Made by a program: the position numbers and the translations under genes. The notes below the pieces were generated by a model that did not search any database, had not been told where the DNA came from, and saw only the letters and a list, made by a program, of their open reading frames with translations. Below, in pieces: positions 434 to 43,509 of a DNA stretch of 64,000 bases. Numbering within the stretch: position 1 is the first letter of the stretch; each line of letters starts with the position of its first letter. Source of the DNA: Clavulina sp. PMI_390 (taxonomy: Eukaryota > Basidiomycota > Agaricomycetes > Cantharellales > Hydnaceae); NCBI GenBank assembly GCA_015039315.1, contig WIDE01000016.1, forward strand, positions 1 through 64,000, read 5' to 3'.

Positions 434-2954
434 TTAGTCAGCGTCCGACGCGTCCTCGTCGTCCGATGCATTTGTGCTTGCGGAATAGCTCGAGGTGTGG
501 TTATCACCCTCGTTCATCAGTGCGCGAAGAGCATCACGCTCAGCTTGCGCTGCTCGGGATTCCTTGGGTAGTCCCAAGTCGTCTAGCGTAATGCTGTAGT
601 TGTGCAAGCAGTCCGCAAGCGCCTTGCGGTTCTTCTCCTGATCCTTCTCGTACATGATTCGTCGGAGCACAAGCGCCTCTTCCTCAGCAAGCTTCGCGTC
701 CTCGAACCGCTGGACGGACCCTCGTCGAACGCCAAGATTCTCCAACGAACTGGAGAGCGGCTCGATGTACTCATCAGGATCGTACTCGTACAGCAGTCGT
801 CGGAGTACGACAGCTTCCTCGTTTGTCGACAGCGCCTCCTCTAACCGCTTGATACTATACAAGTGGATTGAGTAGGTGTGCAGCATCCCTGCCAGTCGTG
901 CCCGATTCGCGCTCGGGCGGACTCGATAGCCTTCCCGACGGATCGCGAGTGCTTCCTCATCGAGCACGCATGCCTCCTCGTCGCGCTTGTGCCTGTGCAG
1001 GGCTAGTGCCTGGTTACGCAGCAGTCGTGCAAGGTCGCCTTGTGATGACAAAGGAGTGTCGAGGTACAGTGCGCGCTGCAGACGGACAGCTTCGGCACGG
1101 TAGATGAGGGTGTCGGGCTCTCGCTCGGGGGAATTGCCAAGGAACGTATCGATCTCGTCAATAACGTCGATGAACTTTGATGCTCGCTTGCGCACGCTCT
1201 TTGATATCGAGTCAATGATGGCGATATTAGGTGCCAGCTCCTGTAGAATGATAGGAAGGTTGGATGGAATTGATGTTGGGTCAGTCACTCAGACAATACA
1301 GGGGCATTGTCATATGAGGAAGTGCATACCAGAGCTGTCTTCACTTTGGTTTTGATTGCTTCGTCTTCTACCGTCACGTCATCATCCAGGTCATGGAGCT
1401 TGCCAATGAGCTCTGCACTTGGACCCTCGTAAGGGACGTGAGGACGAGGATACTGAGGCGATGACCCGCGCTCCTCCGGTAGCTGAGCATTCGACTCGGG
1501 CGGTGATGATGTTGCGTCACTGGCATAGGACGGCACCTGGGAACCCGCGGACGGTGCTCGTCGATGGTTAGGTAGTGCCCCGTTAACCCCACTAGCACCC
1601 GGACCTGGCAGTGGTAGTGAAAGCGAGTGAACCTGCTGATCATAGGGGGACGACTGTGGGGGAGACACAGATCGCAACGGTGCAGACGAGGCCTTCTGCG
1701 CAGGTTGGCGAGGGGAAGGCGAGCGGCGGATGGGCAGGGTAGCAGCAGCTGCTGCTACGGAACTATCATCAGCAGACGTATCGGCTTCTGATACCTCAGG
1801 CTTGGAGACCTCGATGCTTGGTGCCACTGATCGCCGAGGTGCAGCAGGTGTTTTCCTTCCGTCCCAGACGCGAGAGGAGACACGGATCCGAATGTCGCTT
1901 GCTAATGTTGCGTATTTCAGATTTCCATTGACGAACCAGCCAGTCTGGGCGCCCTCAAGGTGCTGCTGGATGAGGGAGCAGAAGAACCAGCAGTTCTCCT
2001 GGGTTACAGAGATAAGGTTGTGAACAGGGTCAGTTTAAAGTTTTATCATCAGAGTACGAGATGGGGAGATGAACTGACAGGCCAGATACGGTATGACACA
2101 ATCTCCTCTGTGATGATACGGAGGAGTCGGCTGAACTCTGCGAGGTTTGGTGGATTCGAGAACACTTGTGTGTTTTCCCTGAACGAATCGCCAACAAGGA
2201 GGTCTTTCGTTGCGGAGAGCATCCCCTACACGAACCAGGATCGTATGATCAGTAAAAAAAAATGAAATGAGATGGCGGTGTCAACTCATAACTCTTGCTG
2301 ACGATAGGAAAGAGCCCTACATACCCGGTCGTTCGCCTTTGTAACACCCGACACAGCCAAGAACCTCATGACGGAGACTTTCTCTCCTCGCCGCCGATCT
2401 AATCTCAGCCAGATGACCTTTCGTCGTGGCCTGCGCAGCTCCAGAACCACAAAGCGGTGCGTGACTGCGCCGGCCCTTTCGGAATAGCATTCTGAAGACA
2501 CGATAGCTGCCTGCTGCAACGACCTGTGGTCGTCGATATAGTTGCAGACGTCTGCCAGCGATAGGTCGATCACACCGTATGTTGGTACGACTGTGCCGAC
2601 TGTTGCGGCTGATGCAACACTCATGAGTGAGGCACGGGACATTGATCGGCTCAGCGAGCGCGAGCCTTTTGGTGTCGAGGGGGCGCTCTTGGAACCAAAC
2701 GATGTTGGCTCTGGTAGGATCACCATGTGGTTGCCATTATCGTCGATGAAGAATTCTTGCTGAATATCGTTCACGTTGCCGTTAGATCATGCACGATCGA
2801 GAGAGGCGATGAGAGTCAGGATGGCAGAGGATGAGTCGATAAGCAATGGGTAGACACTCACTAGACTGTCCATACTCCCTGCTGGACTTTCATAGAACGC
2901 CCCGAACTGGGATGTGGGCAGAGGGGTGCCGTAGTCTTCTACGGGCGAGTCCAT
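434..2954 (-). CDS. TPR-repeat protein with fungal N-terminal domain
   Basis: Predicted 716 aa from five exons: 2954-2862, 2759-2325, 2225-2079, 1998-1330, 1240-434. All junctions keep frame. The start is the first in-frame ATG (2954); the frame stays open further upstream to 3272 (His/Thr/Pro-rich) without an ATG, so an extra 5' exon is possible. Residues about 32-290 form a compact domain containing the segments EFFIDDNGNHMV and ENCWFFCSLIQQHLE; I do not recognise it as a named family. A Ser/Pro-rich linker (about 290-400) follows. The last exon has repeated helical pairs of TPR type (AVRLQRALYLD, EEALAIRREGYR, EEALVLRRIMYE) and an acidic tail. TPRs usually mediate protein-protein contacts; no catalytic motif is visible. 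The specific role is unknown. Confidence 0.82.
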
Positions 2955-4160
2955 TGGACGATAGCTGGTAGTTCTGAGTTGAGTGGCCTTGAATGACCCG
3001 ACGGTAGATCTACTGGCAGCGCGTTTGAATGCAAAGCCTGCTACTGTAGAGTGAGGATGTGGAGGAGGGGGTTGCTGGTGGTGGTGGTAAAAGCTTGCAG
3101 TGTGTGGAGGACCAGTGTATATATCCGCAGATGAAGAAGTGGTGGTGGTGGTGGTGGTGGCAGTGGGTGGGAACCCAACGATGATAATAAGGGGACTCGG
3201 AGCAGGGTAAGGGTGCTGCTGTTCCGTGACGACCCCGCCTGTTATATAAGAACCCGGAGATGAGATTGCCAAGGTTCAGTTGGGGGCTCGGAAGAATCGC
3301 ACTCGGTGGGTCGGGAGGGCTAAAGAGGTACAGAGAGTGGGCAAAGGGCGGACAGCCTTGTCAAGGCAAGCAGTGCCAAACTTGTCATTTCCCAAGAAAT
3401 TGTATAGTAACAGGGTGATACAGCCACGCTGCTCCCCCCCGCCGGATGTGAGGGCTCCATGATTTGGAATCAGAGACTAGATCCCGAATAACCGCAACCT
3501 TCCGATTGCCGATTGGTCTGAGGATCTTTCATTTTGATCTTGTTCTCTGCGTCTATGTTACGTGACAGCAGCGTCTATTGGTGATTCGCCTTCCCACGTG
3601 CCGCCCTCTGTCCCTAACACTTGCTAAATATACATGTAACAAGCGCCCATTGGGGTTGTGTCCCCCTGGTTTCCCTCCATCCCTTGGAAAACTCTGGAAT
3701 GCTCCCCAGTGAAGCCTCTCCGCCGCCCTGATAGTTCCTGTGCTGACATAATCAGATTCTGATGGTTTGGATGCTGGTTGATGGGGAGGCTCACAGCCTC
3801 CACCAACTGGAACCGTTCAAAGTGAACTCACGTGCCCTGATGGGTGGCGATGCCCCCAATGATCGTCGTACCTTCCAAGCAAGCGAAACTGCGCTTTTGC
3901 GGTCCTTGCGCCTCGTTCCGCGGCAGCAGCGGAGTTTCGGGAGGCGCTGACCGGGAATACGGATATAGGTGCCTCAACTTTAGACGGATATCCATTGCAC
4001 CAAAGCGCGCCGCCAACAGCATGTGCAGCGGAGGCTATATCAAATATATTATAGCAGTCAAAAGCAAAGCAAGCAAAACGCGTAACAAGTGTCGTAAAAA
4101 TGGGGGATATGAACTCATTCTGTTGAAGAATATGGAGAAAGTGGACATGAAGCACAGCAT
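2955..4160. other. intergenic, no gene seen
   Basis: Lies between the start of the TPR gene and the stop of the permease gene, both minus strand. It presumably contains the TPR promoter and 5' leader. Open frames here look like chance frames, and no RNA gene was recognised. Confidence 0.5.
3139..3160. repeat. (GTG)n microsatellite
   Basis: A run of about seven GTG units upstream of the TPR gene start. On the minus strand, in the open frame, it would encode a short threonine run inside a His/Pro/Thr-rich stretch that may be 5' leader or an unplaced N-terminus. Confidence 0.8.
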
Positions 4161-7100
4161 CTATGCAGACATCTTCACTTCAGAGGTTGGCCCAGTCGTG
4201 CTCTCGCCGTTCGAGCTTGGCGTCTCGCCCTCGACCACTGGGGGGATATCAATGTTACCCTGGGCACCCTTGTAGTGCCGTCTAGCTCCCAGGAAGTACC
4301 AGACACTGCGGCAAGAGAGATATGCAATGAGAATCCTTGGTACATCAAAGGAGGGAAAATAAACACATACAACGATAGCAGGATGACGCCAACAGTGATG
4401 ACGCTCGCATAGTTGAAGTTGAATTGATCGATAGGGCGGACAGTCGGCCAGCAAAGGATGATGGCCACAAACGATACCCATCTGTCGGAGAGAGCGGCAC
4501 GAAAAATGGTGCAGTGCATAAGAAAGAGGCTTGGCACCCGACTCCGAGGCGGATCACTTACAGGATGCAGTTAATGTTAACAAACCAGCCCAGCAACCCG
4601 TCGCCAAGATAGAATGGACCAGGGGTGAAAACCACATCGGGATGGTTCCGGTAGATTCTCCGGCACGCGATCGGGATGATGTAGCTGATGTCCAAAGCCA
4701 CTGCCGTGAGCGCAAAGATGGCATTGGCTGCGGTAGGTGATGCGAGATCAAGCAGCCCGGGAAGGATAGACAGGAACACGTTGAGCCAGACAGCGTTGAG
4801 TGGGGTGCGGGTGAGCCCCGAGTTGCGCCCGAAGAATCCCTTGTCGGGGAAGCCGCGATCACGGGAGAACGCGTAGAAGGTCCTAGATGAGGCTTGCAGC
4901 GCAGTCCTATTGTTCGGAAGGTCGAAATACGGTTAGGTTGGAGAGATGAGGGGGAGGGAGAAGGGAAATGACGTACTGCACGACGAAGAAAGCGGTCATG
5001 CAGACAAAGGTCCAGAGGAAGAGGGTACCACCCTTGCCGATACGAATGTACATAATCTATGAACCACCCCTGTCAGCAGGCGCGTACCGGATAAGATGAC
5101 TAGCAATGCGATGCACCAACCTCGATGAAAGCCAACCCCGTGGGGCCCGGGAGGTTTGCAATATCGCCAGAGCACAAGACCAAAGAGATGTTGAGGAGCC
5201 ATCCAATCAGCCCAGTTCCGATGACAGCCACGAAGATAGCAACGGGGGCAGCATATGCGGCGCGTCGGACTTCCTCAGAGATGTGTGCTGTGGCATCGTA
5301 ATCGGTCATCTAATGACAAACAAAAAGGTCGTATATGAGAACCCAGGAACGTAAGGCACGGCGCATAGAGCAATAAGCACCGTCCATTGCACACTGAGAA
5401 GGCCGAACAGGAAGGAGAGACCACTATTCCAGAAGTGTATGCCATCTGCGGTTGTTCCATTCATGAGACCTTGAGAGCCAAAGACGTATCTGTTCCCCAA
5501 GGCAAGCAATGTAAGCGCATGACTCTAACACTTTAACACGGAGGATAGACGTCATGGGACAGTAACACTGGTACGTACCCAGCCGAGTGCATATTATCCT
5601 TTCCAGTGCATGCGAGCAACACAATGATGATAAGAATCGTCGTCCCCACATTGATGAACACGAAGCCGACAGTGAAGCGTGCAAGATGCTTGGTCGCAAT
5701 GCTGTTTAGGATTCCATGCTAGAAGGAACGACACAGATAGAGGGTTGAATCACATCGATATGAGAATTTGGCGACCGAAATATGGCAATGAATGAGACAG
5801 GTGGAACGTACAATGATGAGGAGGGCGACGAAAAGCCCAACGATCTTTCCACTCGTGACCGTGTAGTTTCCATCCTTGCCAATGACAACAGCTGCCCAAA
5901 TCCTGTAAAAGTCGATATTTGTAGCAAGCGAATCGTCAGCAATGAACCCTAGGTGAAAGCAAGGGGTGCAAGGACCTCATGAAACGACGATTCACTTACA
6001 TTTGGGAAAGACCAAACTCAGTCGACGAGACGCCAGCAATTTGGCCCTACATTCCAGAAATCCAACGAGACACCGAATCGTCATCGAAGGGGGCAAGAAG
6101 AGTGGCGGCGGATGAGTCAATATTCATGTCATGAGGGTAGACCGATCAGCGGCTTATAGCTGCGGAGGGGGGCCCAGAACGAGCCGGATAGCCAGAACGG
6201 CGAATAGAAGAGGGCTACTTACCAGCATGTTCAGCCACCCGACAACCCATCCCACGAGCGCGCGATGCTTAGGTGGGACCTAAAATAAAGTGCCAAGTAA
6301 GCGTCTCGCAAATCACCGGATTCGGTGGTTGACAGCCAGACTACCACGAGGAAGGCTTACCAATTTGGCCGAAGCAGTGTAGAGGCCACCAGCGGTAGGG
6401 AAGGCGCTGACTGTCAGAGCAAGTCCAGACCGTCGTCGTCACACGACATTCGTATCACCCAACCAGCCACAAACCCAGGAACAAGCCGACAATGCGAATT
6501 ATGATGGGAAAAAGGTTTCAGGAAATGAGATAAAGGCTCTAACAGGAAGACTGCGGGGAAAAACAAAGAGGCATGAATGATAGGACGTACCAATTTCGGC
6601 AATCGAGGTGCCTAGGGTGAAGCACATGCAAGAGCCGAGAATCCAGCACCAGCTGTAGGCGTCCAAAAGTGCGCGTCATTGATCATAGAAGCACCGATCA
6701 ATGATTGGCAGGGGTGGAGAAGAGCGAGCGGGGAGACGCCGCAGAAATATGGTGATAAGGATAGTGGCAGGTTCCGTCAAGCGACCGGCGGGATGGAGGA
6801 CATGATAATAATAGTCAGTATCATTGGAGGGTGGAGGTTGAGTCTGACTCATATGCATGATAATGCAATAGAGAACAATGGATGGAGGAGAAATGTTTAC
6901 AACAAGATAGGATGTGACGGGTGGCACATCCTATACAAATGCAAATTGAATTGACAAGATAGTGGAATTGATGCTCACACGACGGCGGAGGGACCACCCA
7001 GCAAGAGGGGAGTGTTGAACGTGGTAGCAATGGAAGAGCACATGCCCATGATACTATCATCGTTATTTGAGCTGAGGTGTGGTTCTGCTAGAAGAGAGTG

Positions 7101-8100: not shown

Positions 8101-10370
8101 ATGTTCAAGAAACAATTCACGACGAAGACAGAGGTCCCTTTAAGGGGCTCCGATCGCCGCAAGCTTCGGGCCTCCCTGGCAGAGACTTATCTCCCCAACC
8201 CCCCTCCTGCTTACCTAGGACGCATCGCGTTGCCGCCAGCCACCACTCCTAATGTCGTGCCAACCGCCTCTACAGCTGCGCCGGTGGAGGTAGATCCCAA
8301 CAAGCCATATGCTGATATGCTAGCGCCGGAAGATATAAGATCCACAAAATTCACCACTTCGCTAGGCGACAAAGGGGTGAATACCCATCTTCCTTTTCTC
8401 TATCTGAGGCTGTTTGTGTGATCAAGTTGAAACCTGAGCTGCTTGCTTGCTTGAATTCTTTTGCAACCGGGAATATAATCCCCTCATTAAGTAGACACTT
8501 TACACCTCGAATGGTGATCCACTGTGGTTCAAGGACAGTGATGACGCATTTGAGTTACTCCCAACTGGTGAGTAATCCATCCAGGTGCTCATTTGATCCC
8601 CCAGGCTAATCGCGACCTTGCTGCAGTGTATCTTCTGTGGCGTATCTCCTTGCTGCCAATCATTACGACACCTCCGGTGGCAATCGACTCGTTGTTTGGA
8701 GGATCCGACCTCTTCATCCCTGGAATATTCACCATTTCGCCCCCCTCCTCCGAACCTGGCTCGCCCGTTGATCTGAAAGCCGGAGCGGCCGTCGCCATTG
8801 CCTCCACCAAATCTCCTATGGTTCCCGTCGCAGTTGGCCGGCTTGCCGTAGACACGAAAGATATGAAGGATGATGAAAAGGGAAAGGCAGTCCATGTACT
8901 GCATACTTGGAAGGACACGCTGTGGAGTTCAGGGAGTAAAGAGGACCCTCCATCGCAACTGGTACCTCTACTGAGTAGTTCGGACGAATCGGCTGCTGCT
9001 ACAGGCCTGGCAGATGGCGTTGAGAATCTCACACTGGATGGCTTCCCTCAAGAGCCTAGTGAAACTGGAGCAACAGTTCGTGAACCATCACAGAATCTCA
9101 CCCCGGAAGGTGATCTACATATCCATCTATTACCCATTGTAGAACTCCACTGACGGATATCTCTACATTCAGAGGCGGATGCTTTGCTTCACGAGGCACT
9201 CTTGCACTATCTCCACACATTGGCCCAATCGCCAGCGCAGACACCCGAACTACCCATTTCCTCGTCTACATTCTATTCCGCCTACATTCTTCCAAATCGA
9301 CGTTTCATCCCGACCCCTCCCGACGCGCCATCGCCAGCCTCCCAAGATATCATGAAACGCTCTTCATACAAAAAGCTCGCCAAATTCCTCGCTGCGGTGG
9401 AAAAGGAAGGTCTGATTCGAACGAAACAGATCCAGAAACCGTCGCCCGATACCTTAATAATGGCGCTCAATATATCTCATCCGAATGTGGGGGCACACGC
9501 GAGCGCGAACCAGCGGTACAAGAGCGTTGCAGAGGAAGAGGCGAAGACGGTGCGACGAGAGAAAGCAGGCAAGGAGCGGGAAGATGCGAGCGCAAAGGGT
9601 ATCGAGGTGCTCGAGTACTGGAAAGTCCACGGTCGGGAATGCACCGCGTTCTTCGCCAACGCGACCGGTGCTATTCCCAACGAGCAAGCATCGGCCTCAA
9701 CGAAAGAGTTCTACACTGCCCCCGAGCTCAAGGCTTTGTTAGACGCGTACATCGCTTCCCGGAATCTTGTGCATCCACGAGAGAAGCGCTATGTCCTCGT
9801 GGACGCTGAGCGTGCCCCGCTGTTGCGCGCTCTGATTCTTCCTCCGCCACCGAAAAAGAAGAAGGCTGCTGCTGAGCAACAAGCGGGTGCTAGTGCTGTT
9901 GATACTGGTGATGGGCAGCCGGATTTCTTGCCACGGGAGGACGTGCTTCCTAAACTGAAGAAGGCGATGCAGGCATGGTACGAAGTGCGCAAAGGCGATA
10001 AGGAAGGCACTCCAAAGTTCGTATACTGCTTCTTACCCAATGCTTGAATGGATACTTAACCATCCTCAATTACAGAAAAGGCACCCTAAGTCCCGTCAAT
10101 GTCACTACAGCCAAGCGTGCAGGCCGCAAACTCGTCACTCTCGTCACCAACTTTGAGCCTTTCCTCCTCGACGCAGACGCGCTCGCGGAGTCGCTTCGCA
10201 AATCTTGTGCTGGAGCTACGTCCGTTGCGCCCAGAGAAGGCGCAGGAGCCGGAGCAGGGATGGAGGTGTTGGTGCAAGGCGAGCATGTAAATGCCGCAGT
10301 AGCGCTGATCATGGCGGAAGGAGTCCCAGAGAAGTGGATCAAGAGTGAGGGGGCCAAGAAAAAGAAGTAG
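8101..10370 (+). CDS. TMA64: translation factor eIF2D (Tma64/ligatin family)
   Basis: About 657 aa, a ribosome-associated factor that in known homologues acts in tRNA delivery and in recycling of 40S subunits. Exons 8101-8376, 8495-8567, 8627-9109, 9173-10020, 10076-10370. The N-terminus starts MFKKQFTTKTEVPL followed by SDRRKLR, and continues to TLYTSNGDPLWFKDSDDAFE, which is the PUA-like region of this family. The middle holds a long acidic linker and a winged-helix/SWIB-like part (SSYKKLAKFLAAVEKEGLI). The C-terminus is a SUI1/eIF1-like domain (GRKLVTLVTNFEPFLLDADA, then VLVQGEHVNAAVALIM) ending in a Lys tail. The exon 4/5 junction (GTATAC donor, TTACAG acceptor before AAAAGG) is one base out of frame; a three-A run would read through. 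I take this as a sequencing error or a missed splice variant. Confidence 0.88.
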
Positions 10371-11945: not shown

Positions 11946-14792
11946 ATGGTAGGACGTGCTGCGCCCAAGAAAGGTGTGCTGTCTTCCTCATCAATCTCAC
12001 TGGCCCTGATCCCGCATAACTTATGATATCTGACCTGGTTGTCGCATCCGTGCTCAGGCGAGAACTGGGAACTTCGCGCCGACCTCAACAGCGAGTATCG
12101 CGACAAGCGAAAGGATGCGATCAAGCGCGTCATCGCCAACATGACTGTTGGTAAGGACGTCAGCGGGCTGTTTCCTGACGTCCTCAAGAACATGCAAACC
12201 GAAGATCTGGAGCAGAAGAAACTGGTCTATCTGTATCTCATGAATTACGCCAAAACTCAGCCTGAGCTGGTCATCCTTGCCGTCAATACTTTCGTCAAGG
12301 TGCTTCTGGCCCATCATATGCCTCAATAGTGCCGAACGTTCTAAATCGCTCCTCTGGTTCGTATGTAGGACTCTGACGACCCCAACCCTCTCGTCCGCGC
12401 ACTTGCGATTCGGACAATGGGTATTCTCCGCGCAGACAAGATCATCGACTATCTCTCCGACCCCCTGCTCAAATCTCTGAGGGATGAAAACCCTTATGTA
12501 CGAAAAACTGCAGCATTGTGCGTCGCCAAGCTGTTCGATGTTAAACCTGAACTGGCGATCGAGAACGGCTTTGTGGCACAGCTCCATGAGATGATCGGGG
12601 ATGCAAACCCAATGGTGAGTCTATGAAGCTGCTCGACTAGTTTGATGTCATTTGCTTAACAACACCTCGGCCTAGGTCGTCGCTAACGCGGTAACAGCAC
12701 TGTCAGATATCCACCAAAATGTTATGGCTCAAGTCGCTGAAGGCACCGCACCAGACTCGAGAGCTACCTTTGTCATCAACTCTACCGTTCTCAACAAGCT
12801 CCTCATTGCTCTTAACGAATGCTCGGAATGGGGTCGTGTTGCTATCTTGGGCTGCCTTTCGAGATACAAGACCAGTGACGACAAGGAAAGTGAACACATC
12901 TGCGAACGAGTCATGCCTCAATTCCAGCATGCCAACGGTGCTGTCGTCCTTACAGCTGTACGAGTAAGTGAAGAGGTTCACCCTGCTCTATGTCGGCACT
13001 GATCTGGCACTACATCTAGGTCATCATGATCCATATGCGGAATGTGAAACGAGACGACCTCGTCACTCAACTCATCCGCAAGATGGCTCCTCCATTAGGT
13101 TCGTAATATCTGTTTATGAGACAAAGACCGTGATGCTGAACCTCATCCTGAAATCTAGTCACCCTTGTCTCTGCTGAACCCGAAGTCCAGTGGGTCGCCC
13201 TCCGTAACATCAACCTCCTCCTGCAAAAGCGCCCCGAAATCTTGCAAAACGAGATGCGAGTCTTCTTCTGCAAATACAACGACCCTCCATACATCAAAGT
13301 CGAGAAGCTTGATATTATGATTCGGTTGGCCGGAGACAAGAACGTTGACACATTATTGAGCGAACTGAAAGAGTGTGTCTCCTCTCCAATATTTTATTCA
13401 CATTGAAATTTTCTTATCACAATGAATCAGGTATGCCTCTGAGGTCGATGTTGATTTCGTGCGCAAGTCGGTAAAGGCTATTGGCCAGTGCGCAGTGAAA
13501 ATCGATGCTGCAGCAGAGCGCTGTGTCAACGTCCTTCTAGAGCTGATCAGTACTCGGGTCAGCTATGTTGTTCAGGAGGCTGTTGTCGTCATGAAGGTGC
13601 GCCATGTTTCAATCTTTCATCGGTACCTGTTGTTAAAATCACACCGTGTAGGATATCTTCCGGAAATACCCTCATAGCTATGAAGCCGTCATTCCTACCC
13701 TATGTAACAGTCTAGAAGAACTAGATGAGCCGGAAGCCAAAGCCTCGCTCATCTGGATTATTGGAGAATACGCCGAGAAGATTGAGAACGCTGACGAACT
13801 GCTCGCGATCTTTGTTGACACTTTCATAGAGGAGGCTTATCCAGTTCGTATTCTGGAAGGCGACTATTCTGGTGCGCTCCAAACTGACTTCTGTTGCGTA
13901 GGTCCAACTGCAAACCCTGACGGCTGTCGTCAAACTCTTCCTGAAGAAACCTGATAATTCGCAAGGCGTCGTCCAAAAGGTACTCGAGACCGCAACGAAG
14001 GACTGTGAAAGCCCAGACGTACGGGACCGAGCGTATATCTATTGGCGGTTGTTGTCAACAGACCCTGGTGCTGCCAGAGTGAGTTGGCTTCTTACCTTGG
14101 TTTTAGTATATTCATTTATCACATTCACGATAGGCTGTCGTCCTTGCCGCAAGGCCGCCTATCTCACTTAACCGGACCACCGTGTCGCCGATCGTGCTTG
14201 AGGAGTTATTAGGGGAAATTGGTTCTTTGGCGAGCGTGTACCACAAGCCCGCTGAGACCTTCGTGGGACGAGGGCGAATGGGAGCAGACGGCCTCAAGAA
14301 AACTTCCGAGTAAGTCCTGCAAGGGGTTGAAACTACTACGCAGAACATCGTACTTACATAACGACTTTCAGATTCGATGACGAGATCTCAGCCCGCGAGA
14401 AGGCATTGAAGACGGTGGTTCAAGGACAGCAAGCCGAGAATCTACTCGACTTTGATGATCCCGAACCATCATCGACTTCTGATCCTTTGTCCGGTGGCGG
14501 TGGATTGGCGTCTATCATTATGGGTGGACAGGCAAGCGCAAATCCGGCCACAGCGAAGATCCTCACTTCGACGAACCCGCTGGACGATCTGGTATCAATT
14601 TTCGGGAACGCAAACTTGGGCCCTTCCGCCCCGCCCTCGGGGATAGCCTCTCCAATAGGAGGCGCCCCTGCGTCAAATGCGTTTGGTGGGTTAGGAGGAA
14701 TGGGCGGTATGACCTCACCCATCGCCCCAGCAACATCATCGGCGCAAGCACAACCGAGGAAACCGCAGGACGATCTCCTTGACTTATTCTAG
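11946..14792 (+). CDS. AP-1/AP-2 complex beta subunit (beta-adaptin)
   Basis: 742 aa, large beta subunit of a clathrin adaptor complex acting at trans-Golgi/endosome or plasma membrane. Eleven exons: 11946-11973, 12058-12299, 12369-12614, 12676-12963, 13020-13098, 13159-13372, 13431-13596, 13652-13843, 13902-14078, 14134-14309, 14372-14792, all in frame. The N-terminal trunk is typical HEAT/armadillo repeat adaptin: [86 protein letters not shown]. After about residue 600 comes a Gly/Ser/Pro-rich hinge with acidic clusters ([17 protein letters not shown] at the very end) that resemble clathrin-box motifs. There is no folded ear domain. AP-1 and AP-2 beta cannot be separated from sequence alone here. 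Confidence 0.93.
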
Positions 14793-15427
14793 GCCTTTCT
14801 TTGTATGATACTATTCCTCATGAGACGAGCCAAGGAATGTTACACCAGAAGCTCTCCCCGCCTTTGTTTTCCAATTTGTGTTCCTCGTGCATGCACTGCT
14901 TTGGCCAACATTAACCTGGAATTGAGTAGCAGGAATTTGGGCTACCAGGCAAACCGCGTCATATATCTTTAGGTGTATGAATAGTTTGATCGCATCGTAT
15001 GTGCTGGTGACTCCTCAGGCGAATCAGGTCAAATGGCGGAAATGCCAAAGGAAAGGATGCTTGCCAACTTGATTCGTGTTTCCGAGTGGGTGGGCGGTGG
15101 CAGTTCGGCACCGAAGCAAGCAGTTCTCCTAGCCAGTGAATCATGACTCTTTCCATGAAGGCAGTGCTACAGTATCGGGTTATCATATTGCCAGCTATCT
15201 CATGCGTTAGCCAGGCAAGCAGAGTAAAACCTGCCTGATCTCCCTTGCCCAAGCCAGCCATCCGAGCCCCACCATGCTGTAAGCTTGTCCATTTAGCACT
15301 GAGCGACCCGAACCCTGCAAAACTCATTTCTATCGATACTGCCCGACTCTAGCGAACTCACTACTAGTCAGTTACCCTCTTAGTAGTCCCCCAGCTATCT
15401 TGATACTGAACGAATGCTCGGATTTAG
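14793..15427. other. intergenic, no gene seen
   Basis: 635 bp between beta-adaptin and the first recognisable exon of the diverged EF-2 paralogue. A minus-strand open frame at 14959-15327 has no family features and is treated as chance. The two small first exons expected for an EF-2 gene were not found here. Confidence 0.5.
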
Positions 15428-15444
15428 CTGACGTTCAGCGGCTC

Positions 15445-18415
15445 ATGAATAATGCCTGCAACATCCGTAACGTCTCTTTCATTGGCTATGGTGAGTTTTC
15501 AGTCCCATATCATGTTTTTGTTCCTCACAATGATGATTCCAAACACTGTGATACCTACAACTAGTCAATGATGACCACTCTCACCTTGCCGACGTCCTTG
15601 CCAGCCAGCGAGGAATTACCATCACCGCTGAGAATCAGGCCGCTGAACCTCCGAACGAGGGTGATGGTGCTCCCATAAAGTCTCCTGCAATCCCATTGTG
15701 CTTCGAAGCGTCGAAAGAAATATGTGATGTCATCAAGCAGCAAAGCCAAGGTGCATACCTTCCTCTTCGCCTTTACCTGCAAATCATTCTCACGAAAGCA
15801 TGATAGTCGTGAGCAATCGCTTCTTGATTAATTTGGTTAATCCTGCTCAGCATGGCGAACCCTCGTCCGAAATCTCTGCGGCCCTCCGTACCACCGACGG
15901 TGCTGTATTCGTCATTGACTGCGTAGAAGGCATCTCTCTACAGACGGAAGATGCTTTGCGTCAGGCCTCGGCCGACGGTGTCAAGCCGGTTCTCGCTATT
16001 TCCGAAGTCGATCGTGCCCTACTTGAGCTCCAGCCTGACAAGGAGTCCCTGTACCAGGTCTTCCGGCAGATAATCGAGTCCTGCAATAACACCATCTCTT
16101 TGTATGGTGATACCTCACTTGGTGATGTTAGGGTACATCCTAGCCAAGATACCGTCGCCTTCGCGTCAGCTTTACAGGGCTGGACATTCACCCTTAGGCA
16201 GTTCGTCACCACCTATGCAGCAAAATTCGGCGTTGACAAGAAAAAGATGATGGATAAACTATGGGGAGATAATTATTTTGATCCCAGGACTAAAAAATGG
16301 ACCACATACGGCGTCACGGATGACGGCACGAAGCTCGAGCGCGGTTTCAACGCCTTTGTCCTCGCCCCTATATATAAAATCGTCGACGCGGCCATGAACT
16401 CTAAGAGACACGAGATGCTCGCCCTCGTCAGCAAGCTTGACATCAAGCTTTCCCAAGATGAGGAACAGCTAGAAGGGGGGCCTCTTTTCAAAGCCATCAT
16501 GTCCAAGTTCTTACCCACCAGTGACGTACTCTTGGAGATGATTACCGTTGCTCTCCCTTCGCCCGTCACCGCTCAGCGCTACCGTGTGAGAGACCTTTAT
16601 GAAGGTCCCATGAGCGACGAAGCTGCGAGTGGGATACGTGATTGTGATCCCGCCGCTCCTCTTGTCCTCTATGTTTCCAAGTTGGTACCAAGCTCGGACA
16701 AGGGCCGCTTCTACGCTTTCGGGCGTATATTCTCCGGGAGAGTTACGCCTGGCCTCCGAGTTCGCATTCAGGGGCCGAACTATATCCCCTACCAGCGGTC
16801 CGACCTATTCGTCAAGCCGGTCCAGCGCACTCTATTCATGGCGACGCATTCCGCGGAGCCTATGGAGAGCGTGCCTGCCGGTAACATTATCGGTTTAGCC
16901 GGTATTGATCAGTTCATCCTCAAGAATGGTACCCTTACGACTTCAGAGACAGCTCATAATATCAAACCATTGAGATTCTCCGTGGCACCCATAGTGCAGG
17001 TCGCTGTTGAGGTTCGGAATGCTGGTGACCTACCCAAGCTGGTGGACGGCCTCAAGAGCCTCTCCAAATCTGAACCTGGTGTGCAAACCTGGGTCTCCGA
17101 GTCTGGTGAGCACATCATCGCTAGTGCTAGTGAGCTCCGTCTCGATATCTGCTTTAAGGTATGTCGCTGCTTCGTCTCCCCATTGTCACAGAGCCGATTC
17201 ATCTTATATTAGGACCTCCAAGAAGACCACGCCGGAGTTGCTCTCAAGCGTGGGCGTCCGATCGTCACTTACCGCGAGACTGTCAAAGCCGAATCGTCGA
17301 TGATTGCCATTTCCAAATCGCCAAATAAACGTCACCGTATCCATGTCACTGCGTGTCCACTTGGGGAAGCTCTCACGCGGGATATAGAAGCAGGTAAAAT
17401 AAATTCCCGTGACGAATCCCGGACTCGCGCTCGTATATTGGAGTCGATGCATGGGTGGAATATCGCTGATGCAAAGAGGATCTGGTGCTTCGGACCTGAC
17501 ACCACTGGTCCTAATCTACTAGTCGACAATACCGAAGGGGTACAGTATGTCAACGAAATCAAAGATGCTTGTGCTGGCGCATTTCAATGGACAACTAAGG
17601 AAGGCGTTTGTGCAGAAGAGAGCATGCGTGGCGTTCGCTTCAACATCCTTGATGTCATGGCAAGTTACCTCAGGTCCTTCTGATTGATTCTGGCAAGGGT
17701 GGCTCTGATATTTTCTTTGTTAAGATGCAACGCGATAACGTGCTCCGTGGCAATGGTCAGGTCATCCCCATGCTAAGGCGTGTCTGTTATGCGGCGTTCT
17801 TGCTCGCCACTCCCGGACTGCAGGAACCTATCTATCTGGGTACGCAATGATAATTTTCCGTCCAAAACTCTATTGTGCCAGTAAACTCAGCTACTTTCTG
17901 CGTTCTCCAGTTATTATTCAGTGTCCTGAGAATGCCATAGTGGGTGTTCACTCCGCGCTCAGCCAGCGTCGTGGTCAGATTATATCTCGAGAACTGCGCC
18001 CAAGAGTGGGTGTCTTCGGAAAGCGTCAACCAAATCTTCTTCACTAATTTATGACGCTATCATAGACGTCAGAACTCACAATGAAAGCTTTCCTACCTGT
18101 TAGCGAGTCGTTTGGGTTTACTGCTAGTCTCCGAGACAAAACCGAAGGCCAAGCCCTCCACCAATTTGTTTTTGACCACTATGAAACCATGGACAGTTGT
18201 GAGTGGACTATTATGCCTTGTTTTGAGGAAGTTACGCTGACTATCGCGCCTCAGCGCCACTGGACGAGGGCAGTAACGTGGAGAAGATCGTTACGGAGAT
18301 CCGGATGAGAAAGGGCCTCAATCCCAGTATCCCCACTCTAGACAGATACTATGACAAGTGCGTTACAATTTTGCTGCTTCCACATGTTCCTAATTTCCAT
18401 ATTGTTAGGATGTGA
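15445..18415 (+). CDS. diverged EF-2 paralogue, GTPase motifs lost
   Basis: About 827 aa if translation starts at the internal Met at 15445. Exons 15428(splice start)-15490, 15565-15750, 15807-17158, 17213-17659, 17725-17839, 17911-18005, 18066-18198, 18255-18357, 18409-18415. Six of these nine exons (the first and the last five) have exactly the length of the matching exon in the normal EF-2 gene at 40304-43509; the second coding exon is shorter and the long third one slightly longer. There is no internal stop. The normal gene's first two tiny exons have no clear counterpart. Domains II-V remain close to EF-2 ([49 protein letters not shown]). The G domain is ruined: the P-loop region reads [13 protein letters not shown]3 reads [12 protein letters not shown] instead of [11 protein letters not shown], and G4 reads SEVDRA instead of NKVDRA. 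The diphthamide loop reads NVLRGNGQ instead of TIHRGGGQ. One intron (17660-17724) has a GC donor. It is either a non-GTPase EF-2 homologue under constraint or a very young pseudogene; the open frame favours the former. Confidence 0.82.
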
Positions 18416-39668: not shown

Positions 39669-39855
39669 NNNNNNNNNNNNNNNNNNNNNNNNNNNNNNNN
39701 NNNNNNNNNNNNNNNNNNNNNNNNNNNNNNNNNNNNNNNNNNNNNNNNNNNNNNNNNNNNNNNNNNNNNNNNNNNNNNNNNNNNNNNNNNNNNNNNNNNN
39801 NNNNNNNNNNNNNNNNNNNNNNNNNNNNNNNNNNNNNNNNNNNNNNNNNNNNNNN
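39669..39855. other. assembly gap (187 N)
   Basis: A run of 187 undetermined bases flanked on both sides by the same 53-bp sequence. Any gene spanning it cannot be read. Confidence 0.99.
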
Positions 39856-40303: not shown

Positions 40304-43300
40304 ATGGTGTAAGCCCCAGCCGCTCAAGGGATCGTGATACCGATCTCATGAATAACATCTCCACCCATCTTTGCAGCAAATTCTCTATCGGTGAGTGTCC
40401 GCTAACTTTACACCTTCGGTTGCGGCACTGAATGTGTGCTCTAATTCAGACGAGATAAGACAACTCATGGACGTTCCATATAACATCCGTAACATGTCGG
40501 TCATTGCTCATGGTGAGTTCTCGACTTGGTGTTGTTGGCAGCATGAGCTTGGAGCTCAGTTAGTACAATATTAGTTGACCACGGCAAGTCCACCCTCACC
40601 GACTCGCTCGTGGCCAAGGCGGGTATCATTGCCGATGCCCATGCTGGCAGTGCAAGGTTTATGGATACAACGGCTGAAGAAAAGGAACGCGGCATAACGA
40701 TTAAGTCGACTGCTGTCTCGATGTACTTTGAGATGGCCGAGGAGGACGTTGAACTCATCAAGCAGAAGACTCAAGGTATTGTCTCATCATGACTACTGCG
40801 TTCTCTTTCACTACTCCGCACGATGTATAACCTACCTAACCCTCTTATATCACGATAATAGGCCACCACTTCCTGATCAATTTGATCGACTCGCCAGGCC
40901 ATGTCGACTTCTCATCCGAGGTCACTGCTGCTCTCCGTGTCACCGACGGTGCTCTAGTGGTCGTTGACTGTATCGAAGGGGCCTCCGTACAGACTGAGAC
41001 CGTGCTACGACAGGCTCTCACCGAGCGCATCAAGCCCGTCCTAGTGATCAACAAGGTCGATCGTGCCCTTCTCGAGCTGCAGGTTGACAAGGAATCCCTA
41101 TACCAGAGCTTCCAGCGCACGGTTGAGTCTTGCAACGTCATCATCTCTACCTATCAAGAGGCCTCTCTTGGCGATGTTCAAGTCTATCCTGACCAGGGTA
41201 CCGTCGCCTTCGCAGCAGGAATCCACGGCTGGGCGTTCACTCTTAGGCAGTTCGCCAACCGCTATGCCAAAAAGTTCGGGGTCGACAAGAGCAAGATGAT
41301 GTCCAAGTTATGGGGCGACAACTACTTCAACCCTGCTACGAAGAAGTGGACCACCAAGGGCAAGACGGACGACGGCAAGGAGCTTGAGCGTGCTTTCAAT
41401 ATGTTCGTTCTTGACCCTATCTACAAGATCTTCGACGCCATCATGAACGCGAAGAAGGAGGAGGCGTTTACACTTCTACAGAAGCTCGATGTCCACCTGC
41501 TTCAAGCGGAGAGAGACTTGGAAGGAAAGGAGCTCCTCAAAGTTGCCATGCGCAAGTTCCTTCCGGCCGGTGATGCTCTCCTGGAGATGATCGTTATCAA
41601 CCTACCTTCACCCGCTACCGCTCAGCGTTACCGTGTCGACACACTGTACGAGGGTCCCATGGATGACGAATCTGCCGTTGGCATCCGCAACTGTGATCCT
41701 AATGGGCCTCTGGTGGTGTACGTGTCGAAGATGGTGCCGACCTCCGACAAGGGCCGCTTCTACGCCTTTGGGCGCGTTTTCTCTGGAAAAGCCATGGCTG
41801 GCCTGAAAGTTCGCATCCAGGGCCCGAACTACGTTCCGGGCGGAAAGTCAGACCTCTTCGTCAAATCCATCCAGCGTACCGTGCTCATGATGGGCCGTTC
41901 CGTCGAGCCGATCGAGAACGTGCCTGCTGGGAATATCGTGGGGTTAGCTGGTATTGATCAGTTCTTGCTCAAGAGTGGCACACTCACGACGTCTGAGACT
42001 GCCCATAACATGAAGGTCATGAAGTTCTCTGTCTCTCCTGTCGTGCAACTGGCTGTCGAGACGAGAAACCCCGGAGATCTGCCCAAGCTCGTGGAAGGCC
42101 TGAAACGACTCTCCAAGTCTGACCCTTGCGTGCAGACCTGGATCTCCGAATCTGGGGAGCACATCATTGCCGGTGCTGGCGAGCTTCATCTGGAAATCTG
42201 CTTCAAGGTAAGCTAATCAATTCGGTCTGATTGGTTACCAATTGTATATTTCTCAATCACCCGTCTTCGTTGATGAACGCAGGACCTCGAGCAAGAGCAC
42301 GCTGGTGTTCCTCTCAAACAAGGGCGCCCCATCGTTGGATATCGTGAGACAGTCAAGGCCGCATCCTCCATGACCGCACTCTCCAAATCGCAGAACAAGC
42401 ACAACCGCCTCTACGTTTCTGCGCTTCCACTCGAAGAAGAGCTCGTCCGCGAGATTGAGGCTGGAAAGATACACGCTCGTGACGATTTCAAAGCCCGCGC
42501 TCGTGTCCTCGCTGATGAACATGGATGGGACGTTGGCGATGCTCGCAAGATCTGGTGCTTTGGACCAGATACCACTGGTCCAAACTTGCTCGTCGACGTC
42601 ACCAAGGGTGTGCAGTACCTAAACGAGATAAAGGACTCTTGTGTAGCCGGCTTCCAGTGGGCGACCAGGGAGGGTGTCTGTGCCCAAGAGAGTATGCGTG
42701 GTGTTCGTTTCAACATCGTCGATGTCACTGTGCGTCTCGATTTCGCCTCTCCTTTCCTGTGGCATTCGCCTCCACCTCGTGATGTGAAGCTAACAAGCAC
42801 TACTCTCCCATAGTTACATACCGATACCATCCATCGCGGTGGTGGCCAGATCCTGCCGCTATGTCGACGTGTCTGCTATGCCGCATGCCTCCTTGCCACT
42901 CCTGGTCTTCAAGAGCCTATATATCTTGGTATGTGTCACCCGACACTCACTACCATTGGCCCAGCTGACGATTGGTTCTTATCTACCGCAGTTGAGATAC
43001 AGTGTCCAGAGAGGGCCATTGGTGGTATCTACTCAGTGCTCAACCGTCGCCGTGGTCAGGTGTTCTCTGAAGAGCAACGTCCAGGCGTAAGTCCCGTTTT
43101 TCCTCGCTGAATGGGACCAGTCTTCTCACATCGTCTCATGTTACCTTAGACACCAATGTTCACAGTGAAAGCTTACCTTCCTGTCAGCGAATCCTTCGGT
43201 TTCGCGGCTGATCTTCGTAGCCAGACTCAGGGACAGGCTTTCCCTCAGTCTGTCTTTGACCACTACGAGGTCATGAGTGGTTGTGAGTGCTTCTTAGCTG

Positions 43301-43509
43301 CTATTCTGTCCTATGGCAGCTCGTTGATCACATCACTTTTCAGCTCCTCTCGACGCTGGTAGTGGTGTTGCGAAGATCGTGACCGAAATCCGTGTCCGCA
43401 AGGGTCTCAAGCCAGAGATCCCTCCTCTAGATGAGTACTATGATAAGTACGTCATTTTCTTAGCCTCTCGGTCCTCTATCAATCTCAATATTCCCCGCTT
43501 AGGTTGTAA
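40304..43509 (+). CDS. EFT2: translation elongation factor 2
   Basis: 842 aa, exactly the eukaryotic EF-2 length; the GTPase that translocates tRNA-mRNA on the ribosome. Eleven exons: 40304-40308 (5 nt), 40377-40390 (14 nt), 40450-40512, 40575-40775, 40862-42207, 42283-42729, 42814-42928, 42992-43086, 43150-43282, 43344-43446, 43503-43509. The start gives [15 protein letters not shown] motifs: [14 protein letters not shown] (P-loop), [34 protein letters not shown]. Domain IV keeps the diphthamide loop [14 protein letters not shown] with its His, and the C-terminus runs [18 protein letters not shown] to EYYDKL. This is the functional copy; a degenerate paralogue with the same exon pattern lies at 15.4-18.4 kb. 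It sits between two inverted Gfo/Idh paralogues. Confidence 0.97.

What the first reader, a model, noticed from the sequence alone, without database searches (positions are those of the whole stretch)
15445..18415. Intact EF-2 paralogue that has lost the GTPase signature motifs
The gene keeps the EF-2 exon layout of the normal gene at 40.3 kb (six of nine exons identical in length, none with stops) and a well-conserved body, but P-loop, switch, G3 and G4 motifs are replaced ([29 protein letters not shown]). A neutrally decaying copy should have lost its frame by the time the GTPase motifs were erased. This suggests a retained non-GTPase EF-2 homologue, for example a ribosome-binding regulator.
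Basis: partly seen in the sequence, partly recalled or inferred. Interest (0 to 1): 0.88.

Follow-up and report, generated by a model that had tools for sequence, protein, structure and literature searches.

The report
Fungal EF-2 copy without GTPase site
A fungus carries a complete extra copy of the ribosome motor protein EF-2 whose fuel-burning site has been erased, yet natural selection seems to have kept the rest of the protein intact; what it does is not known.

Summary
Confirmed, with corrections. The window lies in a fungal genome that matches NCBI's Clavulina sp. PMI_390. Nine of 11 exon lengths equal those of EF-2; the others differ by -15 and +6. The nucleotide site is erased: K32H, T69P, D104N, G107Q, N158S, K159E; diphthamide His699 is Leu. 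Losses concentrate in the G motifs (21 of 32 near-invariant positions against 94 of 402 elsewhere, p 1.5e-6). The rest is under purifying selection: omega 0.165, omega 1 rejected. The genome holds four EF-2 genes; one on C238 is partly degenerate and probably the sister. Neutral decay long enough to erase the motifs would have produced stops. Best reading: a retained eEF2 pseudoGTPase, probably acting on ribosomes without nucleotide. The ribosome role is inferred, expression is untested, and very recent death is not excluded. Bacterial EF-G2 is a known parallel; no eukaryotic case turned up in my searches.

The parts
15274..15278 (+). exon 1 (ATGCT), likely start codon
   Evidence: matches the ATGGT|GTAAG (or GTAGG) exon 1 of the other EF-2 copies. 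The NCBI model has no start here.
15353..15366 (+). exon 2 (14 nt), likely
   Evidence: same length and phase as EF-2 exon 2; 5, 8 and 7 of 14 bases equal to those of the C253, 40.3 kb and C238 copies; a second 14-nt candidate (15372-15385) has 3 of 14 with each. 8.5% of 236 AG-14 nt-GT stretches of the window match as well. Weakest part of the model.
15428..15490 (+). exon 3 (63 nt)
   Evidence: same length as EF-2 exon 3
15565..15750 (+). exon 4 (186 nt; 15 shorter than EF-2), P-loop and switch I region
15565..15587 (+). former P-loop, now VNDDHSHL (the V codon begins in exon 3)
   Evidence: alignment; place checked
15657..15686 (+). former switch I, now [10 protein letters not shown]
   Evidence: place checked
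15807..17158 (+). exon 5 (1352 nt; 6 longer than EF-2), rest of domain I, domains II and III
15839..15862 (+). former G3 DSPGHVDF, now NPAQHGEP
   Evidence: place checked
16001..16012 (+). former G4 NKVD, now SEVD
   Evidence: place checked
17213..17659 (+). exon 6 (447 nt), mostly domain IV
17330..17332 (+). His583 of the domain IV tip, now Arg
17725..17839 (+). exon 7 (115 nt); the intron before it is GC-AG in this model; the NCBI model splices it differently
17743..17745 (+). diphthamide His699 codon, now Leu
17911..18005 (+). exon 8 (95 nt)
18066..18198 (+). exon 9 (133 nt)
18255..18357 (+). exon 10 (103 nt)
18409..18415 (+). exon 11 with stop codon
   Evidence: the NCBI model instead reads on through the last intron to the same end
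40304..43509 (+). second EF-2 copy (b40), 842 aa, all GTPase motifs kept; comparison gene
   Evidence: letter for letter NCBI protein P0002

Best explanation
It is an intact, retained paralogue of translation elongation factor 2 that has become a pseudoGTPase. Shown by sequence: complete open frame with EF-2 exon plan, erased nucleotide site, lost diphthamide histidine, purifying selection on the rest. Inferred: the protein still has the EF-2 shape and binds the ribosomal factor site without GTP, and, being unable to use the GTP/GDP switch and altered at the domain IV tip, it acts as a regulator or placeholder (for example on idle ribosomes) and not as the general translocase, which the other copies supply.
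For: 11-exon model with no stop, nine GT-AG introns and one GC-AG, 9 of 11 exon lengths unchanged. Six nucleotide-site residues near-invariant in EF-2 are replaced, five of them in this protein alone among 162 aligned, and losses are concentrated there (21 of 32 against 94 of 402). Omega on its branch 0.165, omega 1 rejected by 2dlnL 39.8; domains II-V 0.12, domain III 0.065, the G1-switch I stretch 0.39. Simulation: 0.05 neutral substitutions per site leave P(no stop) at or under 0.03, and 14 losses at 22 motif positions that the C238 copy keeps do not fit in that time (P 2e-9). The probable sister on C238 shares the N158S change and is also open and constrained, omega 0.073. Codon bias is a little above third-base-matched resampling (0.366 against at most 0.361 in 200). 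Precedents: an EF-G paralogue that translocates without GTP hydrolysis (PMC12775393, passages) and dormant-ribosome eEF2 that may be nucleotide-free (PMC11063288, passages).
Against: No expression evidence: its protein cluster holds one sequence, from NCBI only, called partial. Highest identity of any listed protein is 65%. Odd splice features (GC donor, moved acceptor, weak exon 2 match) are what an ageing gene would show. Its omega is higher than that of the C238 copy (2dlnL 7.5). dS above 1 is near saturation. Clustering of losses at the domain IV tip is not significant (5 of 13, p 0.17). The structure prediction failed (mean pLDDT 47), so the fold is not confirmed.
Confidence: 0.5

Rival explanations
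1. A gene that was under selection for most of its life and has died very recently; the motifs were lost while it had some function and the odd splice sites are first signs of decay.
For: GC donor, moved acceptor, weak exon 2, highest omega of the four terminal branches, no close relative among listed proteins. A stop-free frame still allows up to about 0.05 neutral substitutions per site.
Against: No stop or frameshift in the model, splice ends usable, codon bias above matched resampling.
Confidence: 0.2
2. A GTP-independent translocase used under energy limitation, the way Bacteroides EF-G2 is thought to work.
For: Same kind of change, a translocase paralogue losing the GTPase site while the body is kept; Bacteroides fusA2 is induced by carbon limitation (PMC6989115, passages).
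Against: His583, His694 and His699 at the domain IV tip are all changed; in the yeast structure His583 stacks within, and His694 and diphthamide-699 touch, the A-site helix mimic or its loops (PMC4861600, passages). The same paper finds H699N normal in ordinary elongation but defective on an IRES, so this evidence is not strong.
Confidence: 0.15
3. A function away from the ribosome, using the EF-2 fold as a scaffold, with loss of nucleotide switching as a side effect.
For: Snu114 shows that the EF-2 fold can be used outside translation (role recalled; Snu114 chains match by sequence).
Against: Domains II-V stay at omega 0.12; that these are the ribosome-contacting parts is recalled.
Confidence: 0.1
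4. Assembly or gene-model artefact.
For: The NCBI model differs at both ends and at intron 6; read depth was not available.
Against: The gene lies on a 480 kb contig and is far from the three other copies (58.6-63.8% protein identity); a coding frame with omega 0.165 does not come from assembly error.
Confidence: 0.03

Closest known systems
eEF2 (fungal EF-2)
   Same: 63% identity to the Clavulina C253 copy, EF-2 domains found by Pfam, same exon plan
   Different: G1, switch I, G3 and G4 residues, and the diphthamide histidine, are replaced
Bacteroides EF-G2 (fusA2), an EF-G paralogue lacking GTPase activity
   Same: paralogue of the translocation GTPase that works without GTP hydrolysis (a sentence and the title of the original paper seen in PMC12775393; the original is not held)
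   Different: bacterial, separate origin; scores 46 bits against a family cut-off of 1000
Class I septin pseudoGTPases such as Spn7
   Same: GTPase-family paralogue with pocket changes incompatible with GTP or GDP (PMC10731463, passages)
   Different: cytoskeletal family, not a translation factor
eEF2 on dormant ribosomes with SERBP1
   Same: an eEF2 on an idle ribosome that may be GTP/GDP-free (PMC11063288, passages)
   Different: there it is ordinary eEF2, not a dedicated paralogue; the same paper says that none of the yeast dormant ribosomes had eEF2
Snu114 and EFL1
   Same: EF-2 relatives with jobs other than elongation (recalled); chains match
   Different: far lower scores than EF-2 chains; other, weaker EF-2 relatives lie on C219 and C24 of this genome, not identified here

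Membership tests
EF-2 (protein family) | EF-G/EF-2 domain architecture | tested here: met
   Pfam G domain, EFG_IV and EFG_C clearly over their cut-offs, EFG_III just over (27.3 against 27); domain II models just under (27.6 against 30.3, 21 against 27)
EF-2 (protein family) | EF-2 exon structure as in the other copies | tested here: met
   9 of 11 exons equal in length, the others differ by multiples of 3
EF-2 (working translocase) | GTPase motifs G1, switch I, G3, G4 | tested here: not met
   K32H, T69P, D104N, G107Q, N158S, K159E; His108 and Asp161 kept
EF-2 (working translocase) | diphthamide histidine 699 | tested here: not met
   Leu; His in 161 of 162 aligned proteins, the exception being this one. 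The genome does hold DPH1/DPH2-family genes (PF01866)
EF-2 (working translocase) | GTP-dependent translocation | not testable with these tools
   needs biochemistry
pseudoGTPase, no-nucleotide class | pocket substitutions incompatible with nucleotide | tested here: met
   by sequence only
pseudoGTPase, no-nucleotide class | does not bind GTP or GDP | not testable with these tools
   needs a binding assay
pseudoGTPase, no-nucleotide class | retained under selection | tested here: met
   omega 0.165, omega 1 rejected
pseudogene | stops, frameshifts or lost splice sites | tested here: not met
   none in the 11-exon model; one GC donor, one acceptor moved in frame
pseudogene | dN/dS near 1 | tested here: not met
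   a very recent death would not show
Bacteroides EF-G2 | NF058620 family score | tested here: not met
   46.2 bits, cut-off 1000

The most novel reading that the evidence does not exclude
A eukaryote has evolved a dedicated nucleotide-free, diphthamide-free EF-2 that occupies ribosomes as a regulator or hibernation factor (or moves them without GTP), arising stepwise through a lineage whose partly degenerate sister copy (C238) still exists in the same genome.
Probability: 0.35. Interest if true: 0.85.

Novelty: new variant of a known kind. Interest (0 to 1): 0.6.

Why it matters
GTP hydrolysis and diphthamide are regarded as hallmarks of eEF2. A natural eEF2 that has lost the sites for both while the rest stays under selection is a ready-made separation-of-function protein: it could show what the EF-2 body does on a ribosome without its switch. 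The four copies in one genome, two normal, one partly and one fully degenerate, form a series that makes the path of loss testable.

Tried and rejected
Structure prediction of the NCBI model P0001 with a 35-row alignment gave mean pLDDT 47.2 and pTM 0.36; the rows were probably too alike. No fold search was run on it and no structural claim is made. One genome-contig scan for diverse EF-2 rows gave one distant bacterial locus, not used.

Protein trees did not fix the order of the four Clavulina copies: long branches meet, a tree on columns 350-842 placed d15 next to the 40 kb copy and not to C238 (support 79), and without C238 the place of d15 had no support. For the C238+d15 pair I rely on the codon model (16.6 lnL units) and on shared residues at conserved positions (21 for C238+d15, 5 for 40 kb+d15); long-branch attraction could inflate both, and no chance expectation for the shared residues was computed.

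The likelihood ratios per region hold branch lengths fixed and use the earlier 822-codon alignment; they overstate significance, and the free fit is the one to trust. Only 25 bootstraps were run. The C238 copy alone shows no significant motif bias (10 of 32 against 75 of 402, p 0.07), and its codon bias does not exceed all resamplings (0.376, maximum 0.377). The codon-bias index is scaled to the C253 copy, so that copy's own value of 0.73 is circular.

The intron comparison used cheap gaps; values sit near shuffled level and say little. A neighbourhood test of window ORFs against 9.9-10 kb flanks of the C238 and C253 copies found no match at E 1e-4, without a positive control. My first gene models were partial or wrong and were replaced. 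The script stopped at its last lines; the missing value is.

Literature: ten searches. For a eukaryotic EF-2 without GTPase site the relevant ones are; I saw listings and abstract starts, and passages of five papers. None describes one, but the library lacks most subscription papers.

Full report
What it is. The window is the first 64 kb of contig C68 (479,974 bases) of a 39.4 Mb, 301-contig genome. NCBI proteins named Clavulina sp. PMI_390 match three of its EF-2 genes: P0002 is letter for letter the 40.3 kb copy, P0121 matches the C238 copy at 100% over 98%, and P0001 is a partial model of the gene of the finding; their contig lengths are those of C68 and C238. That Clavulina is an agaricomycete fungus is recalled. 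A search of the own genome with an EF-2 protein gave 46 matching pieces (the tool calls such counts lower bounds); those to EF-2 itself fall at four loci: a253 on C253, b40 at window 40304-43509, c238 on C238, and d15, the gene of the finding. The other pieces are weaker matches on C219, C24, C274, C258, C291 and C191, not identified further. I see no decayed EF-2 fragment among them.

The gene model. By comparing the four copies, d15 resolves into 11 exons from 15274 to 18415, 2520 nt, 839 amino acids plus stop. Lengths are 5, 14, 63, 186, 1352, 447, 115, 95, 133, 103 and 7, against 5, 14, 63, 201, 1346, 447, 115, 95, 133, 103 and 7 in a253 and b40. Exon 2 is the weakest call: with exon 1 at 15274 three frame-compatible exons were found, two of them 14 nt long; the one chosen has 5, 8 and 7 of 14 bases in common with the other copies, the rejected one 3, 3 and 3, but 8.5% of 236 comparable stretches in the window match as well as 7 of 14. 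Another 25 one-intron solutions from other upstream ATGs are also open. NCBI's model begins inside exon 3 without a start, splices intron 6 differently and reads through the last intron; the core from exon 3 to exon 10 is otherwise the same.

What is lost. In an alignment of 162 collection proteins (of 164 retrieved; the two over 1100 aa were left out), d15, present as P0001, alone has His for the P-loop lysine 32, Pro for switch I threonine 69, Asn for Asp104, Gln for Gly107, Glu for Lys159, Arg for His583 and Leu for His699; it shares Ser for Asn158 with c238; one truncated row lacks the first two positions. His108 and Asp161 remain. The yeast residue numbers fit this alignment directly; the roles of the residues are partly recalled. 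Among 447 positions conserved at 99% or more in 159 background proteins, d15 departs at 120: in the G motifs at 21 of 32, outside motifs and tip loops at 94 of 402 (odds 6.3, p 1.5e-6), in the domain IV tip loops at 5 of 13 (p 0.17). c238 departs at 10 of 32 and 75 of 402 (p 0.07), b40 at 2 of 32 and 12 of 402.

What is kept. Codon likelihood on 834 aligned codons prefers a253+b40 against c238+d15 by 16.6 log units over the next tree. On that tree omega is 0.047 for a253, 0.041 for b40, 0.073 for c238, 0.165 for d15; dS on the d15 branch is about 1.26 (bootstrap 0.92-1.94, 25 replicates). Setting the d15 omega to 1 costs 2dlnL 39.8, p 3e-10. By region, with whole-gene branch lengths fixed and the earlier 822-codon alignment, the d15 omega is 0.39 for residues 17-95, 0.19 for 96-170, 0.18 for 171-345, 0.12 for domain II, 0.07 for III, 0.14 for IV and 0.14 for V and the C-terminus. 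d15 is 63.2% identical to a253, 63.8% to b40 and 58.6% to c238.

Why this is not plain decay. In 200 simulations per setting, 0.05 neutral substitutions per site leave no stop in 3% of runs or fewer and 0.1 in 1% or fewer. The branch is about 25 times longer. In a neutral phase of 0.05 about 10% of residues would change, but 14 of the 22 motif positions that c238 keeps are changed in d15 (P 2e-9). So the nucleotide site was lost while the frame was still being kept. Death within the last 0.05 or so cannot be excluded. Codon bias towards a253 usage is 0.366, above all 200 third-base-matched resamplings (maximum 0.361), in the range of four other open frames of the window (0.28-0.38); the effective number of codons is 54 against 35 for a253: an ordinary, not a highly expressed gene.

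Distribution. Of 7521 proteins with E up to 0.001 among 7992 scored candidates, the best 120 were listed; after the gene itself the best is b40 at 64%, and the highest identity listed is 65%. Searches with c238 and a253 listed 120 each; among the 162 aligned proteins of all three lists no other has lost these residues. Other Clavulina genomes may not be in the collection, so absence elsewhere is not shown.

How it may work (inferred). With no lysine in the P-loop and no switch I threonine, GTP-driven switching is very unlikely. Conserved domains II to V suggest that ribosome docking is kept. In the yeast structure residues 579-584 and 694-700 approach or touch the A-site helix mimic; H699N behaves normally in ordinary elongation there but is defective on an IRES (PMC4861600, passages), so loss of diphthamide alone is not decisive, but three histidines are changed here. 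Idle human ribosomes carry eEF2 that may be nucleotide-free (PMC11063288, passages), which makes a placeholder role plausible, though that paper reports none in yeast. The bacterial EF-G2 precedent makes GTP-free translocation the main functional rival.

Verdict. Observation confirmed and extended; 'retained non-GTPase EF-2' supported; the ribosome role is a hypothesis.

Noticed in passing
contig C238, L010 (about 1490-4660, minus strand): A second odd EF-2: exons 1-10 open, omega 0.073, P-loop lysine and diphthamide His kept, but switch I (QSARTTKPT), G4 (SKMD) and His694 (Met) changed. Its last exon does not follow the EF-2 pattern, and the NCBI model differs at both ends.
   Followed up: partly
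40304-43509: A further EF-2 copy with all GTPase motifs intact, 88% identical to the C253 copy, about 22 kb downstream of the finding on the same strand.
   Followed up: yes
9154-10047 +: ORF with an eIF2D winged-helix domain, another translation factor close by.
   Followed up: no
13902-14171 +: ORF matching the end of the adaptin N-terminal region, just under the Pfam cut-off (36.5 against 37).
   Followed up: no
39669-39855: A run of 187 N with the same short sequence on both sides, just upstream of the second EF-2 copy.
   Followed up: no
P0122 (protein collection): A 1257-aa UniRef entry labelled Helianthus annuus scores higher with the C253 EF-2 than any other listed protein although its best piece is only 57% identical; perhaps a fused double model.
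   Followed up: no
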